Shown in pieces: positions 2,613 through 48,070 of a DNA stretch of 64,000 bases (positions are counted from its first letter, which is position 1; each line of letters opens with the position of its first letter). Position numbers and translations under genes: made by a program. The notes below the pieces were generated by a model. It made no database searches. It worked only from the letters and a program-made list of their open reading frames with translations, and was not told the origin of the DNA. The DNA comes from Pseudomonas sp. TH31 (GTDB taxonomy: Bacteria > Pseudomonadota > Gammaproteobacteria > Pseudomonadales > Pseudomonadaceae), in the NCBI RefSeq assembly GCF_016650815.1, contig NZ_JAEKEZ010000034.1:124001-188000 (forward strand), read 5' to 3'.

Positions 2613-3158
2613 TTAAGGCAGCAAGCTCTTCACGTTGATCGGCTGGGCTTCATTCTGCGCGGCGCCTTTCGGCTTCCCGGCAATCGCCATACCTGCAACA
2701 CGATAGAAGTTGTAATCAGGGTTTTTGCCGGGGCCGGAGATCAGCAGATCTTCTTTCTCGTAAACCAGGTCCTGACGTTTGAACTCGGCCATCTCGAAAT
2801 CCGGTGTCAGCTGGATCGCGGTGGTCGGGCAGGCTTCCTCGCAGAGGCCGCAAAAGATGCAGCGCGAGAAGTTGATGCGGAAGAAGTCCGGGTACCAGCG
2901 ACCGTCTTCGGTTTCGGCTTTCTGCAGCGAGATGCAACCGACCGGGCAGGCCACGGCGCACAGGTTGCAGGCTACACAACGCTCTTCGCCATCAGGGTCG
3001 CGGGTCAGGACGATACGGCCACGGTAGCGCGGCGGCAGGTACACGGCTTCTTCCGGGTACTGCAGCGTGTCGCGCTTGCGGAAGGCGTGGCCGAAGATCA
3101 TCACCAGGCTGCGAAGCTGGGTGAAGAAGCCATGCACGATGTCAAAAATGTACTTCAT
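2613..3158 (-). CDS. nuoI: NADH-quinone oxidoreductase subunit I (two 4Fe-4S clusters)
   Basis: This peripheral-arm subunit of complex I passes electrons through two tetranuclear clusters (N6a and N6b) towards NuoB. The 181-residue protein has two classic ferredoxin motifs: [12 protein letters not shown] with Cys 61, 64, 67 and 71, and [12 protein letters not shown] with Cys 100, 103, 106 and 110. An amphipathic N-terminus ([16 protein letters not shown]) probably contacts the membrane arm. It lies 12 bases after nuoH and 9 bases before nuoJ. Confidence 0.98.
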
Positions 3159-3170
3159 GATTCTCTATCC

Positions 3171-4178
3171 TCACTGAGCCGCGACGGCGGGCGTGTTGAG
3201 CAACACGATCGCAGCGGTCACCAGCATGTTGACGAGGGTCAGCGGCAGGCAGAACTTCCAGCTGAAATCCATCACTTGGTCATACCGTGGGCGCGGAATC
3301 GAGGCGCGCAGCAGGATGAAGATCATGATGAAGAACGCGGTTTTGAGCGCGAACCAGAGGAACGGGATCTGCGGCAGAATGCCGAACGGACCGTGCCAGC
3401 CACCGAAGAACAAGGTCACCAGCAGCGCCGAAACCAACACGATGCCGATGTACTCACCGACGAAGAACATGCCCCATTTCATGCCGGCGTATTCAATGTG
3501 GTAACCGTCGGCCAGTTCCTGCTCCGCTTCCGGCTGGTCGAACGGGTGACGGTGAGTCACGGCGACGCCAGCAATGAAGAAGGTCAGGAAACCGAAGATC
3601 TGCGGAATGATGAACCACAGGTGCTGGGCTTGATAATCGACGATGTCGCGCATGTTGAACGAGCCGACCTGGATCACGATGCCCATCAACGACAGGCCCA
3701 TGAACACTTCGTACGACACGGTTTGTGCCGAGGCCCGCAAGCTGCCCAGCAGGGCGAACTTGTTGTTACTCGACCAACCGGCGAACAACACGGCGTAGAC
3801 CGACAGGCCGGCCATGGCGAAGAAGAACAGGATGCCGATGTTCAGATCCGCCACGCCCCAGGTCGGGGTGATCGGGATGATCGCAAAGGCAATCAGCAGG
3901 GCGCTCATGGCCACGACCGGCGCCAGGGTGAAGATCATCTTGTCGGCGAACGGCGGCGTCCAGTCTTCCTTGAAGAACATCTTGATCATGTCGGCGGCAA
4001 TCTGGAACGCGCCGAACGGGCCGACGCGGTTCGGACCGTAACGGTCCTGCCAGAGGGCGAGCAGGCGACGCTCGACCCAGCTCAGCAGCGCGCCGCAAAC
4101 AACGACGGCGAGCAGAATCACGATGGCCTTGAGGACGGCGATGATTACGTCGATCACTTCAGGCGTGAACCAGGTCAT
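3171..4178 (-). CDS. nuoH: NADH-quinone oxidoreductase subunit H
   Basis: This 335-residue membrane subunit forms much of the quinone-binding cavity and links the peripheral arm to the membrane arm. It has about eight hydrophobic helices. The family motif region [20 protein letters not shown] near residues 37-56 is present, as is the acidic loop [20 protein letters not shown] near residue 219 that faces the quinone site. The ATG overlaps the nuoG stop by four bases. Confidence 0.97.
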
Positions 4179-6889
4179 TGAGCTGCCTCCTGCAGACCGT
4201 CAACGGTTTTGCCAAAGATCGCCGCTGGAATGCCGGCGATACCCGCAGGCAATGCCACCAGGCCAGCGCCCAGCTCTTCGTTGATACGCAGTGGCAGACG
4301 CAAGGTCTGGCCCTCTACGGTCAAGCTGAGCATTGCGCCCTCGTTGACACCCAGGCGATCGGCTTCGGATTTGGCCAGTGCGACGTAGGCGGCCGGGATA
4401 CGTTCCTGAACCGGTGCGGCTTTGGAAGAGGTCTCTTCGCTGCCGAGCAGGTGGAAGAACGGCACGACCTGCCAGGTCCCTTGAGCCGGGTTGAACGCGC
4501 GCGGAACACTGGCGAACCAGTTCAGAGAATCACCGGTGCTTTCGATCAGGCGGGTACCCGGATCGCCAGCACGGATGTGACCACCGACTTCGTCCTGGAA
4601 CTTGTTCCAGGCTTGCGGCGAGTTCCAGCCCGGCGACCAGGCAAACGGCACTTGCTGACGCGGTTCGACCGAGCCCGAGTAACCTTCCATCGAGAAGTTG
4701 AACGCGGTGTCGTTGTCTTGCGGGGTACGCGGTTCGTGAACGCTGATGTCAGCGCGCATGGCGGTACGACCGGAATAACGTAGCGGTTCGCGGGCCAGTT
4801 TCATGCCCTTGATACGGAACGCGGCGGACGGTGCAGCATCAACGATGCGCGCCAGTTGCGGCGTGCTCGAAGCGACTGCTGCGGTGACGTGGTCCAGCTG
4901 AGTCCAGTCGATCGGCTGATTCAGCAGGGTCGCGCGCAGGGCGTGCAGCCAGCGCCAGCCTTCGTGAACCAGGATGCTCGCGTCCATGTATTTCGGGTCG
5001 AACACCTGGAAGAAGCGCTGGGCGCGGCCTTCCTGGCTGACCAAGGTACCGTCGCCTTCAGCAAAGCTGGCAGCTGGCAGAACCAGGTGTGCGCGATCGC
5101 TGGTAGCGGTCTTCTGGTGGTCGGCCACGATCACCACTTTCGCGGCGTTCAGGGCAGCATCGACACGGGCTTTGTCGGTACGGGTGTACAGATCGTTTTC
5201 CAGCACGACGATGGCGTCGGCCTTGCCATCGATCACCGCTTGCAGCGCGTCGTCGACCGAATTGCCACCGAGCATGGCCAGGCCAAGGCTGTTGGCCTCT
5301 GGCACGATCAGGCTGATGGAACCGTTCTTCTCGCGCAGCTTCAGGGCCTTGGCAATGTTTGCCGCCGCTTCGATCAGCGCTTTGGAGCCCAACGAAGTAC
5401 CGGCAATGATCAACGGACGCTTGGCGGCCAGCAGGGCATTGGCGATGCGTTGAGCCAGTTCAACGGCTTCAGCGTCCAGGCCTTCAACGGCCGGTGCGCT
5501 GGCGTCGAGGGCGTGAGCCACGGCGAAACCGATGCGGGCCAGGTCGTCCGGGGCCGCGTGAACGCATTCTTCGGCGATGTCGTCGAGCTTGGTTTCAGCC
5601 AGGCTGGCGATGAACAGTGGGTTCATCTCATGCTGGCCGATGTTCTTCACCGCGGCATCGAGCCACGGCTGAACGCGCATGGCGTCGGCCATGTCTTCGG
5701 CTTTGCCCTTGACCGATTGACGCAGGGACAGGGCCATGCGCGCAGCCGTCTGGGTCAGGTCTTCACCGAGGACGAAGATCGCGTCGTGGTCTTCGATGTC
5801 GCGCATGTTCGGGATCGGCAGCGGGCTGTCTTTCAGCACTTGCATGACCAGGCGGATGCGATCCAGTTCGGCGGCTTCGATACCGGAGTAGAAGTGCTCG
5901 GCGCCGACCAGTTCACGCAACGCGAAGTTGCTTTCGAGGCTGGCACGTGGCGAACCGATACCGACGATGTTGCGGCCGCGCAGCAGGTCAGAGGCTTTAT
6001 CCAGTGCTTCGTCGAGGCTCAGCTTGGCGCCGTTGGCCAGCAGTGGCTGACGCGGGCGGTCTTCGCGGTTGACGTAGCCATAGCCGAAACGGCCACGGTC
6101 GCACAGGAAGTACTGGTTGACCGAACCGTTGAAGCGGTTTTCGATACGACGCAGTTCACCGTAGCGCTCGCCCGGGGAAATGTTGCAACCGCTGGAGCAG
6201 CCATGGCAGATGCTCGGCGAGAACTGCATGTCCCACTTGCGGTTGTAGCGCTCGGAGTGAGTCTTGTCGGTGAACACACCGGTCGGGCAGACCTCGGTGA
6301 GGTTGCCGGAGAACTCGCTTTCCAGCACGCCGTCTTCAACGCGACCGAAGTACACGTTGTCGTGGGCGCCGAATACACCGAGGTCGGTGCCGCCAGCGTA
6401 ATCCTTATAGAAGCGCACGCAGCGGTAGCAAGCGATGCAGCGGTTCATCTCGTGGGAAATGAACGGGCCCAGTTGCTGGTTTTGGTGAGTACGCTTGGTG
6501 AAGCGGTAACGGCGCTCGTTGTGGCCGGTCATTACCGTCATGTCTTGCAGGTGGCAGTGACCGCCTTCTTCACAGACCGGGCAGTCGTGAGGGTGGTTGG
6601 TCATCAGCCATTCGACGACGCTGGCGCGAAATACTTTCGCTTCCTCGTCTTCGATGGAGATCCAGCTGCCGTCGGTGGCGGGGGTCATGCAGGACATGAC
6701 GATCCGACCACGGGTGTCGTTGGCGTCGGTGTACTGCTTGACCGCGCACTGGCGGCAAGCGCCAACGCTGCCAAGGGCTGGGTGCCAGCAGAAATAAGGG
6801 ATATCGAGGCCTAGCGACAGACATGCCTGTAACAGGTTGTCTGCCCCATCGACTTCGAGCTCTTTGCCGTCTACGTGGATAGTGGCCAT
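4175..6889 (-). CDS. nuoG: NADH-quinone oxidoreductase subunit G (Fe-S protein)
   Basis: This is the largest peripheral subunit of complex I (904 residues), carrying the iron-sulfur relay between NuoE/NuoF and NuoI. The N-terminal 2Fe-2S ferredoxin domain shows C-x10-C-x2-C spacing ([19 protein letters not shown]). The His/Cys motif [18 protein letters not shown] binds the next cluster, and [12 protein letters not shown] with CPTG follows. [13 protein letters not shown] plus a later FLCDRG supply the four cysteines of the extra N7 cluster known from E. coli. The rest is a molybdopterin-oxidoreductase-like domain without cofactor motifs, normal for NuoG. It overlaps nuoH by four bases and is separated from nuoF by an unusually long 137-base gap that contains a hairpin. 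Confidence 0.97.
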
Positions 6890-46252: not shown

Positions 46253-46271
46253 CTCTCCTCAGGAAGGAGAG
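46253..46271 (+). promoter_or_regulatory. Hairpin with GGA in the loop, candidate RsmA/RsmE site in the LPMO leader
   Basis: CTCTCCT-CAGGA-AGGAGAG forms a seven-base stem with GGA in the loop, 25 bases before the LPMO ATG. The ribosome binding site itself reads CAACGGAG, an A-N-GGA motif. RsmA/CsrA proteins bind GGA in hairpin loops and commonly control exoenzyme genes in this genus. The match to the full consensus is partial. Confidence 0.45.
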
Positions 46272-46296: not shown

Positions 46297-46932
46297 ATGA
46301 ACAAGCCACAGACTCAACCAGAACTACGACACGGTCGTGTCACCTCCCCATCCAGCCGCGGCGCGGTAGCCGTCGAGCTGGGGCTGCTGGGTAACTGGCA
46401 AGTCAACGAAATGGAAGGCGGCAAGAACTTCCCGTCGTTGGTCGCCGGGCCATTCCCGGCGCCGTATCAAACCGACACGGCCAGCGACGTACCACCGGCC
46501 GACGGCCATATCCTCAGTGGCGGCAAGGTCGACGCCCGTGACTGCATCAACTTCACCAACGAGGAACTGAGCAAAAAGCTCAACCGTCCGTTCGCCTGGC
46601 CGCTGCTGAATGTCGAGCCGGGCCAGACCTTCAAGGTCACCTGGGAATACACCGCCCCCCACGTCACCCGTGGCTACAGCTGGTTTATCACCAAGGACGG
46701 CTGGGACCCGAAACAGCGCATCAACCGCGCGCAGCTGGAGCCTAAATCGTTCTTTGAGGACTTCTACACCCAGGTTCCGTACTACAGCCATTCCGAAGAA
46801 ATGAAGGCCAAGGTCAACCACGAAGTGAAATTGCCGGGCAACAAAAGCGGTCATCACGTGATCGTGCTGGTGTGGATCGTGGCCAACACGGGCAACGCCT
46901 TCTATCAAGCGTTCGACGTGGACTTCAAGTAA
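46297..46932 (+). CDS. AA10-type lytic polysaccharide monooxygenase without signal peptide
   Basis: This 211-residue protein resembles chitin-active copper oxygenases that cut chitin oxidatively. RHGRVTSPSSRG places the copper-ligand His at residue 12. The second ligand is His 122 in YTAPHVTRGYSWF, followed by FITKDGWDP and the C-terminal AFYQAFDVDF. There is no Sec or Tat signal. The His brace needs the His as residue 1, so 11 residues (MNKPQTQPELR) would have to be removed. Only one Cys is present, so the usual disulfides are missing. ATG 46297 has GGAG nine bases upstream. The GTG three codons earlier overlaps it. It precedes the GH18 gene by 42 bases. Confidence 0.88.
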   Translation: MNKPQTQPELRHGRVTSPSSRGAVAVELGLLGNWQVNEMEGGKNFPSLVAGPFPAPYQTDTASDVPPADGHILSGGKVDARDCINFTNEELSKKLNRPFAWPLLNVEPGQTFKVTWEYTAPHVTRGYSWFITKDGWDPKQRINRAQLEPKSFFEDFYTQVPYYSHSEEMKAKVNHEVKLPGNKSGHHVIVLVWIVANTGNAFYQAFDVDFK

Positions 46933-46974
46933 GCCGACTGCGTTAACTCCCCACACGTTCTGAAGGAATAGAAC

Positions 46975-48039
46975 ATGTCAAAGATCGACTTTACGTTAAT
47001 GAAATCTCAACTGAGTGACGCTGCTTCGTTGATGCCGAGCATTGCCGACAAAAAAATCCTGATGGGCTTCTGGCATAACTGGCCCGCGGGGCCGAGTGAC
47101 GGTTACCAGCGTGGCCAATTCGCCAACATCGCGCTGCAGGACGTGCCCAAGGATTACAACGTGGTGGCCGTGGCCTTCATGAAGGGCAATGGCATCCCGA
47201 CCTTCAAACCGTACAACCTGTCCGACACCGAGTTTCGCCGCCAGGTCGGCGTGCTGAACAGCCAGGGCCGTGCGGTGCTGATTTCCCTTGGCGGCGCCGA
47301 TGCGCACATCGAACTGCACAAAGGCAACGAGCAGCCACTGGCTAACGAAATCATTCGTCTGGTGGAAACCTACGGCTTCGATGGGCTGGACATCGATCTT
47401 GAACAAAGCGCGATTGATTTCGCCGATAACAAGACTGTCTTGCCTGCCGCGCTGAAACTGGTCAAGGACCATTACGCCGGTGAAGGCAAACACTTCATCA
47501 TCAGCATGGCGCCGGAATTCCCGTACCTGACCAGCGCCGGCAAATACGTCGGCTACCTCCAGGCCCTGGAAGGCTATTACGACTTCATCGCCCCGCAGTA
47601 TTACAACCAGGGCGGTGACGGGATCTGGGTGCAGGAAGCCAATAACGGTAACGGCGCGTGGATTGCCCAAAACAACGACGCGATGAAAGAGGACTTCCTG
47701 TTTTACCTGACCGAAAGCCTGGTGAGTGGTACTCGCGGGTTCACCAAAATCCCGGCGGACAAGTTTGTGATCGGCTTGCCGGCCAACGTCGACGCCGCGG
47801 CCACCGGGTATGTGATCGACCCGGCGGCGGTGGTAAATGCCTTCAAGCGTCTCGACGCCAAAGGGCTTTCGATCAAAGGCCTGATGACCTGGTCGGTGAA
47901 TTGGGATAACGGGGTCAACAAAGACCATGTGCCATACAACTGGGAATTCAGCCGTCGCTACGGGCCGTTGATCAACGGCAAGCGGCTTTCTTCCCACGAG
48001 GAAGAGTTCGCGACGCCTGAAGTCGCCAGCCAGCAGTAA
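46975..48039 (+). CDS. GH18 family chitinase without signal peptide
   Basis: This 354-residue enzyme is a single TIM-barrel domain. It has the GH18 signature FDGLDIDLE (residues 125-133, catalytic Glu 133), the SLGG motif in VLISLGGADA, and substrate-site stretches DFIAPQYYNQGG and LMTWSVNWDNG. No signal peptide and no chitin-binding module are present. It follows the LPMO gene by 42 bases with its own GGA-containing ribosome site, so the pair is probably one operon for chitin or a related glycan. Export would need a holin, lysis or a special system, none of which is encoded here. Confidence 0.93.
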   Translation: MSKIDFTLMKSQLSDAASLMPSIADKKILMGFWHNWPAGPSDGYQRGQFANIALQDVPKDYNVVAVAFMKGNGIPTFKPYNLSDTEFRRQVGVLNSQGRAVLISLGGADAHIELHKGNEQPLANEIIRLVETYGFDGLDIDLEQSAIDFADNKTVLPAALKLVKDHYAGEGKHFIISMAPEFPYLTSAGKYVGYLQALEGYYDFIAPQYYNQGGDGIWVQEANNGNGAWIAQNNDAMKEDFLFYLTESLVSGTRGFTKIPADKFVIGLPANVDAAATGYVIDPAAVVNAFKRLDAKGLSIKGLMTWSVNWDNGVNKDHVPYNWEFSRRYGPLINGKRLSSHEEEFATPEVASQQ

Positions 48040-48044
48040 AAAGA

Positions 48045-48070
48045 AGCCCGGCAGAGATGCCGGGCTTTTT
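48045..48070 (+). terminator. Intrinsic terminator of the LPMO-chitinase operon
   Basis: AGCCCGGC and GCCGGGCT form a stem with a six-base loop, followed by T residues, a few bases after the chitinase stop. Confidence 0.92.

What the first reader, a model, noticed from the sequence alone, without database searches (positions are those of the whole stretch)
46297..48039. LPMO-chitinase pair without signal peptides
Both proteins lack any Sec or Tat signal. The LPMO has its copper His at residue 12 instead of residue 1 and only one Cys, so the active His brace cannot form unless 11 residues are cut off. Either a special export and processing route exists (holin-type release, contractile system or lysis), or the enzymes act inside the cell or on an unexpected glycan. 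The paired loss in both genes argues against chance misannotation.
Basis: partly seen in the sequence, partly recalled or inferred. Interest (0 to 1): 0.65.

Follow-up and report, generated by a model that had tools for sequence, protein, structure and literature searches.

The report
Chitin-cutting enzyme pair lacking export signals
A soil bacterium makes a copper chitin-cutting enzyme and a chitinase without the usual export tags; sequence comparisons suggest the copper enzyme is made as an inactive precursor, set free by a phage-type lysis system, and switched on when a protease cuts just before its key histidine.

Summary
Confirmed: 46297-46932 encodes an AA10 LPMO whose copper His is residue 12, with one Cys and no Sec/Tat-like start; 46975-48039 encodes a ChiC-type GH18 chitinase, also without one. 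It is not a paired loss: ChiC of Serratia and P. aeruginosa lacks a signal too, and this LPMO belongs to a clade in which no member read has one before the His. In 106 distinct members the residue before the His is Arg (84) or Lys (22) while the rest of the leader varies; 13 of 13 Sec-type AA10s compared have Ala/Ser there. AlphaFold2 gives low confidence to leader residues 1-8. On two Enterobacterales plasmids the LPMO, with an intact or decayed ChiC gene, lies beside phage-type holin and lysozyme genes; two prophage-like contigs carry it as well. Best reading: a cytosolic pro-LPMO, released with ChiC by a holin/lysis route and matured by an Arg/Lys-type cut that exposes the His. Release and cut are untested, and no lysis gene adjoins the pair here, though a tailocin-like cluster and a prophage elsewhere in the genome have holins. 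My paper searches listed no description of such a clade.

The parts
46297..46932 (+). AA10 LPMO (chitin-type), 211 aa, without signal peptide
   Evidence: PF03067 1-183 of 183, E 7e-30; 3uam E 4.7e-38; Foldseek 3uam TMq 0.79
46297..46329 (+). 11-residue leader MNKPQTQPELR; low confidence in the model, variable except M, N, L and the final R/K
   Evidence: pLDDT below 50 for residues 1-8
46327..46332 (+). Arg11-His12 junction: predicted maturation cut before the copper-binding His
   Evidence: R/K at this place in 106 of 106; the cut is inferred
46543..46545 (+). only Cys codon (C83)
   Evidence: one Cys in 93 of 93 distinct close relatives
46660..46662 (+). second brace His, H122
   Evidence: invariant in the 24 rows
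46900..46902 (+). axial Phe, F202
   Evidence: invariant in the 24 rows
46975..48039 (+). ChiC-type GH18 chitinase, catalytic domain only, no signal peptide
   Evidence: PF00704 E 3e-11; 4axn E 4e-169
47380..47403 (+). DGLDIDLE, GH18 catalytic motif (motif DxxDxDxE recalled)
   Evidence: sequence
46253..46271 (+). hairpin CTCTCCT-CAGGA-AGGAGAG upstream of the LPMO start
   Evidence: a stem of 6 or more pairs in this region in 91 of 93 upstream regions against 41.5% after mononucleotide shuffling
48044..48067 (.). terminator-like hairpin after the chitinase (nearly palindromic)
   Evidence: listed on the - strand, whose total was not above its shuffles

Best explanation
The pair is a co-exported chitin-attack unit. 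ChiC and a pro-LPMO are made and folded in the cytosol without a Sec step, which fits the lack of cysteine pairs. They leave by a holin/endolysin (type 10 secretion-like) or tailocin/prophage lysis event, probably in part of the population. Outside, a protease cuts the flexible leader after Arg11 (Lys in some relatives); this frees the amino group of His12 and completes the copper site. The LPMO then opens crystalline chitin (insect peritrophic matrix, fungal wall) for ChiC. Shown: no signal, a leader with R/K before the His, low model confidence for the leader, gene pairing, lysis genes beside relatives. Inferred: release route in this strain, the protease, activity, substrate.
For: 1) R 84 / K 22 of 106 distinct members before the His; 9 parsimony changes, all between R and K, against 15-26 changes over 9-13 residues at each of positions -3 to -9. 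2) 13 of 13 Sec-type AA10s (by eye) have A or S there, including two Burkholderia proteins 49% identical to the Enterobacter member. 3) pLDDT below 50 for residues 1-8. 4) Chitinase motif directly downstream in 100 of 110 loci, 83 of 93 distinct LPMOs. 5) Enterobacter plasmid: GH18+CBM gene, LPMO, Kil-like gene, holin PF16931, and 3.3 kb further on a lysozyme PF00959. Sodalis plasmid: a gene I read as decayed ChiC, then LPMO, holin PF05106, lysozyme PF00959 in a row. 6) Prophage-like contigs L139 and L140 carry the LPMO 5-6.5 kb downstream of endolysin and Rz-like genes. 7) Own genome: a phage-tail cluster next to mutS with a PF16085 holin, and a prophage with PF16085 holin and GH19-type endolysin; two strong serralysin-type hits. 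8) Precedents in passages: Serratia ChiC release needs ChiX (PMC5778951); Yersinia entomophaga chitinolytic cargo, incl. a chitin-binding protein, depends on a lysis cassette (PMC10847048, PMC10101115); P. aeruginosa ChiC loses 11 residues (PMC11218509); AprA cuts the N-terminus of pre-monalysin (PMC10194917).
Against: No lysis gene adjoins the pair here. Four lysis proteins and three fibre proteins of L139/L140 gave no hit in the flanks (up to 5 kb) of 80 named loci (12 flanks truncated; a narrow query set). The ChiX-type family PF13539 gave no match in the genome. Ten loci keep the LPMO without a chitinase beside it. The R/K rule is not seen in ChiC leaders, so the two need not share a protease. 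Signal-less exceptions: L121 (LPMO fused behind ChiC, Ala) and Streptomyces L157 (Leu). A K/R-only column with several changes is rare but not unique: 1 of 200 mature columns (99 K, 7 R, 6 changes). Trypsin-family hits in the genome are two proteins I read as HtrA-type, so no obvious own trypsin. P. aeruginosa ChiC release was reported as not due to lysis (recalled; paper not held).
Confidence: 0.5

Rival explanations
1. The LPMO is never trimmed and serves as a chitin-binding protein without copper chemistry; the R/K-His-Gly start is structural.
For: The leader is kept in 93 of 93 close relatives. The nearest solved protein, 3uam, is apparently listed without copper in a table of PMC5094447 (passage).
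Against: H12, H122 and F202 are invariant in 24 rows, hard to explain without copper. The 3uam chains listed model 193-200 of 216 residues, so its leader seems mostly unmodelled (inference). A structural Arg/Lys fits poorly with an otherwise freely varying leader.
Confidence: 0.2
2. Both proteins leave by an active, non-lytic, still unknown route that reads their N-termini, with trimming during passage, as once proposed for P. aeruginosa ChiC (recalled).
For: P. aeruginosa ChiC loses 11 residues (PMC11218509, passage); here 11 residues precede the His. The ChiC N-termini printed keep a short [IF][DN]F-like motif.
Against: LPMO leaders of distant members share little but the R/K, unlike an export signal, and vary from 9 to 27 residues. 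LPMO and ChiC leaders are not alike.
Confidence: 0.17
3. No dedicated route: the proteins are stored in the cytosol and freed by ordinary cell death, and any protease in the surroundings trims them.
For: No adjacent lysis genes found at the Pseudomonas loci; the leader has low model confidence.
Against: Holin/lysozyme linkage on two plasmids, prophage-like copies and strict R/K conservation point to selection on release and on the cut.
Confidence: 0.12
4. A misannotated start or a frameshift hides a signal peptide.
For: A common cause of such observations; possible upstream starts exist in 6 of 93 close relatives, and in L115-L118 and L140 the frame stays open upstream through a short hydrophobic stretch.
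Against: Same ATG in 93 of 93 close relatives, upstream frame closed within 20 codons in 86. In L115-L118 and L140 the stretch lies dozens of residues before the His, so signal peptidase would not expose it.
Confidence: 0.01

Closest known systems
Burkholderia pseudomallei AA10 (PDB 3uam)
   Same: Best sequence and fold match; Arg directly before the His
   Different: 38% identity; the passages seen in PMC5094447 and PMC4144037 say nothing of its export or maturation
Serratia marcescens ChiC and the ChiWXYZ type 10 secretion system
   Same: ChiC without obvious signal peptide, highly similar catalytic domain; release needs ChiX (PMC5778951, passages)
   Different: Its LPMO, Cbp21, has a Sec signal (same passages); no PF13539 match in this genome; pair not next to a cassette
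Yersinia entomophaga lysis-cassette cargo
   Same: Chitin-active proteins, incl. a chitin-binding protein, in an exoproteome whose release needs a lysis cassette; nearly all enriched cargo lacks a signal (PMC10847048, PMC10847046, PMC10101115, passages)
   Different: No LPMO maturation in the passages seen; whether its chitin-binding protein belongs to this clade was not tested; TcB family not found here
P. aeruginosa ChiC
   Same: No signal; first 11 residues reported removed (PMC11218509, passages)
   Different: A chitinase, which needs no trimming for activity (general knowledge); its sequence was not compared
CbpD-like, Sec-type AA10s of Pseudomonas (L124, L127)
   Same: AA10 fold and brace
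   Different: Signal-like start ending in Ala before the His, more cysteines, much longer frames

Membership tests
AA10 LPMO | AA10/LPMO_10 fold | tested here: met
   PF03067 full length E 7e-30; best Foldseek hits are AA10 structures
AA10 LPMO | Two brace His plus axial Phe | tested here: met
   H12, H122, F202 invariant in 24 rows
AA10 LPMO | Brace His is residue 1 of the mature protein | not testable with these tools
   Residue 12 of the gene product; trimming inferred from R/K conservation
AA10 LPMO | Copper-dependent oxidation of chitin | not testable with these tools
   needs bench work
ChiC-type GH18 chitinase | Close homology to Serratia ChiC and the acidic GH18 motif | tested here: met
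   E 4e-169; DGLDIDLE in sequence
Type 10 secretion system cargo | Cargo without Sec/Tat signal | tested here: met
   by hydropathy and comparison, no SignalP
Type 10 secretion system cargo | Holin and endolysin genes linked to the cargo genes | tested here: inconclusive
   met for Sodalis and Enterobacter relatives, not met at the window locus
Type 10 secretion system cargo | Release depends on that cassette | not testable with these tools
   needs deletion strains

The most novel reading that the evidence does not exclude
A clade of AA10 LPMOs works as true zymogens: inert in the cytosol because the histidine brace is incomplete, set free by a lytic event, and completed only when a trypsin-like enzyme of the target organism (for example in an insect gut, beside the chitinous peritrophic matrix) cuts after the invariant Arg/Lys.
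Probability: 0.25. Interest if true: 0.8.

Novelty: new variant of a known kind. Interest (0 to 1): 0.52.

Why it matters
LPMOs need an N-terminal His, which signal peptidase normally provides. A clade that makes it by another cut, after non-Sec release, would change how LPMO genes are predicted and produced, would extend type 10 secretion to a copper enzyme, and would give a direct test of how signal-less chitinolytic enzymes of Pseudomonas get out and become active in biocontrol and in insects.

Tried and rejected
Upstream signal-peptide start: rejected for the window. Paired loss: rejected. Tc-toxin partner: TcB family PF12256 gave no match in the genome. ChiX-type peptidase PF13539: no match. 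One cut rule for ChiC and LPMO: not supported, ChiC residues 10-11 vary in the N-termini printed. RsmA/CsrA control of the 5' hairpin: considered, not claimed, since the loops differ among relatives. Class-wide search: 7 of 369 genomes matched at E 1e-12, one being the own genome; the six others have Sec-type starts and A/S before the His. A second viral scan, with the enterobacterial branch, confirmed none of 55 pattern matches. The P. aeruginosa ChiC paper is not held, and its sequence was not compared. Paper searches. Listings (capped, titles and abstract starts) and the passages cited are all that was seen; none of these told of a signal-less AA10 clade or an Arg/Lys-His site.

Rows left out of the count of 106: L121 (fusion, Ala), L126 (gap of N, Arg), L145 Photobacterium (frame broken, Lys), L141 viral contig (more distant, Arg), L157 Streptomyces (Leu), the frameshifted second copy in the own genome (Lys). 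With them the tally is 110 R/K of 112. For L114-L120, L122, L123, L140, L143 and L144 I chose the start codon myself from an open frame (annotated starts agree for L143 and L144); this does not change the residue before the His.

Full report
What is there. The window lies in a Pseudomonas-like genome (7.2 Mb, 38 contigs; 79 of the 80 named relatives are labelled Pseudomonas, one Pantoea; best identity 90%). 46297-46932 encodes a 211-residue AA10 LPMO (PF03067 E 7e-30) and 46975-48039, after a gap of 42 bases, a 354-residue GH18 chitinase whose best solved relative is Serratia ChiC. A terminator-like hairpin follows (48044-48067, not above chance by that scan). The copper His is residue 12, H122 and F202 are present, there is one Cys, and neither protein starts with a signal-like stretch (by hydropathy and eye, no SignalP). 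PF03067 finds one further LPMO in this genome, on a 13-kb contig, and it is frameshifted.

Not a misannotation, not a recent loss. The frame upstream is open for at most 20 codons in 86 of 93; six have a possible start more than 10 codons upstream, none of which I read as a signal ending at the His. A chitinase motif follows within 1.6 kb in 100 of 110 loci. The hemerythrin-like gene upstream of the window pair is present in 39 of 80 named flanks and the NUDIX gene downstream in 31, so this is an old chromosomal site. In the genus search 140 of 298 genomes match at E 1e-10; by my count 70 matches in 68 genomes are at 73% identity or more along nearly the full length. More distant members (37-59% identity: L114-L120 without L121 being needed, L122, L123, L140, L143, L144) also show no signal before the His. 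In L115-L118 and L140 the frame stays open far upstream and passes a short hydrophobic stretch; I took the nearest Met as start, and a signal peptidase cut up there would not expose the His.

The residue before the His. In 106 distinct members it is Arg 84, Lys 22, found with a pattern that allowed any residue; codons CGN 76, AGR 8, AAR 22. On a FastTree tree of the mature domain, Fitch parsimony needs 9 changes there, all between Arg and Lys; positions -3 to -9 need 15-26 changes each and use 9-13 residues; position -2 is Leu 95, Pro 9, Val 1, Ile 1. As a control, 1 of 200 mature columns shows a similar K/R-only pattern (99 K, 7 R, 6 changes), so the pattern is rare but not unique. Among Sec-type AA10s at hand 13 of 13 have Ala or Ser there (L124, L127, L129, L130, L131, two ORFs of L132, L133, L134, L136, L142, L155, L156), as signal peptidase would demand. 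Signal-less exceptions are L121, where the LPMO domain is fused behind ChiC and a CBM in one frame with Ala before the His, and Streptomyces L157 with Leu. AlphaFold2 on 35 aligned sequences gives mean pLDDT 79.6; residues 1-8 and 49-56 are below 50. The best fold match is 3uam (TMq 0.79); its listed chains model 193-200 of 216 residues. I infer a flexible leader with a basic residue kept for a protease.

How it may get out. On the Enterobacter huaxiensis plasmid a GH18 gene with a CBM5/12-like end (6801-7925 of L144; absent from the supplied annotation, which is known to be incomplete) is followed by the LPMO, a Kil-like gene, a holin (PF16931) and, 3.3 kb on, past a LysR gene on the other strand, a phage-type lysozyme (PF00959). 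On the Sodalis praecaptivus plasmid a gene that I read as a decayed ChiC (PF00704 finds no match on that plasmid) is followed by the LPMO, a lambda-type holin (PF05106) and a phage lysozyme (PF00959) on one strand. Two IMG/VR contigs that read as Pseudomonas prophage ends carry the LPMO 5-6.5 kb downstream of an endolysin and an Rz-like gene: L139 (PF07486; Rz family PF03245 just under its cut-off), with ChiC, an FAD/BBE oxidase and an integrase-like gene, and L140 (PF00182; Rz-like spanin by PHROG). A 91-kb viral contig encodes a more distant LPMO, also without a signal and with Arg before its His, ending 60 bases before an Amidase_2 gene. The window locus has no such neighbour. Elsewhere the genome holds a phage-tail cluster next to mutS with a PF16085 holin, which I read as a tailocin, and a prophage with a PF16085 holin, a GH19-type endolysin and an Rz-like gene by eye only. 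PF13539 (ChiX type) and PF12256 (TcB) gave no match. PF08548 has four matches, two of them strong serralysin-type; PF00089 has two that I read as HtrA-type.

Literature seen (passages unless stated). Serratia ChiC has no obvious signal and its release needs ChiX, while Cbp21 has a Sec signal (PMC5778951). In Yersinia entomophaga the enriched secreted cargo, incl. chitin-modifying enzymes, nearly all lacks a signal and is released by cassette-driven lysis (PMC10847048); a chitin-binding protein is among exoproteins whose release is lost in cassette mutants (PMC10101115), and Chi3 and Cbp are raised together with the toxin parts (PMC10847046). P. aeruginosa ChiC has no signal and its first 11 residues are reported removed (PMC11218509). 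In P. entomophila chiC (PSEEN2568) and an LPMO gene (PSEEN2567) are both raised by Pvf, and AprA cuts the N-terminus of pre-monalysin (PMC10194917). In P. protegens Pf-5 PFL_2090 (chitin-binding protein) and PFL_2091 (ChiC) rise together at the protein level under iron limitation (PMC3377617). That these tags are this pair is inferred from order and names; a P. entomophila strain does carry the pair (L083). I saw no mention of a signal-less AA10 clade or an Arg/Lys-His site in the listings.

Verdict. A real, conserved feature: most likely a pro-LPMO released with ChiC by a holin/lysis route and matured by an Arg/Lys-type cut (confidence 0.5). Shown are the absence of signals, the conservation pattern, the gene pairing and the lysis-gene linkage in relatives; release in this strain, the protease, copper binding and substrate are inferred.

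Noticed in passing
L125 (own genome contig C11), 2650-6884: Second copy of the pair: ChiC with extra C-terminal domains intact, LPMO broken by two frameshifts near homopolymers, an FAD/BBE oxidase and a transposase-like gene nearby; may be mobile or from a contaminant (genome contamination 3.69%).
   Followed up: partly
L139 5760-7460, L110 2760-4460, L113 about 2915-4609, L125 5103-6884: FAD_binding_4 plus BBE oxidase (Pfam tested for L139 and L125; AA7-like by recall) next to mobile-looking copies of the pair; might supply hydrogen peroxide to the LPMO.
   Followed up: partly
window 46253-46271 and upstream regions of 93 relatives: Hairpin upstream of the LPMO start, with base changes on both arms in several relatives; in some rows the best stem found lies elsewhere; role unknown.
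   Followed up: partly
L121 (G080): One frame fuses ChiC-GH18, CBM and an LPMO domain, so the LPMO His is internal; the genome is 86% complete, so a frame error is possible.
   Followed up: no
L141 7950-9973: Viral contig LPMO without signal, Arg before the His, 60 bases ahead of an Amidase_2 gene.
   Followed up: partly
L043, L044, L064, L091, L098, L102, L103, L104, L111, L112: LPMO gene with no chitinase motif within 1.6 kb downstream.
   Followed up: no
L143 6794-7630: Gene upstream of the Sodalis LPMO looks like a decayed ChiC, while LPMO, holin and lysozyme are open.
   Followed up: partly
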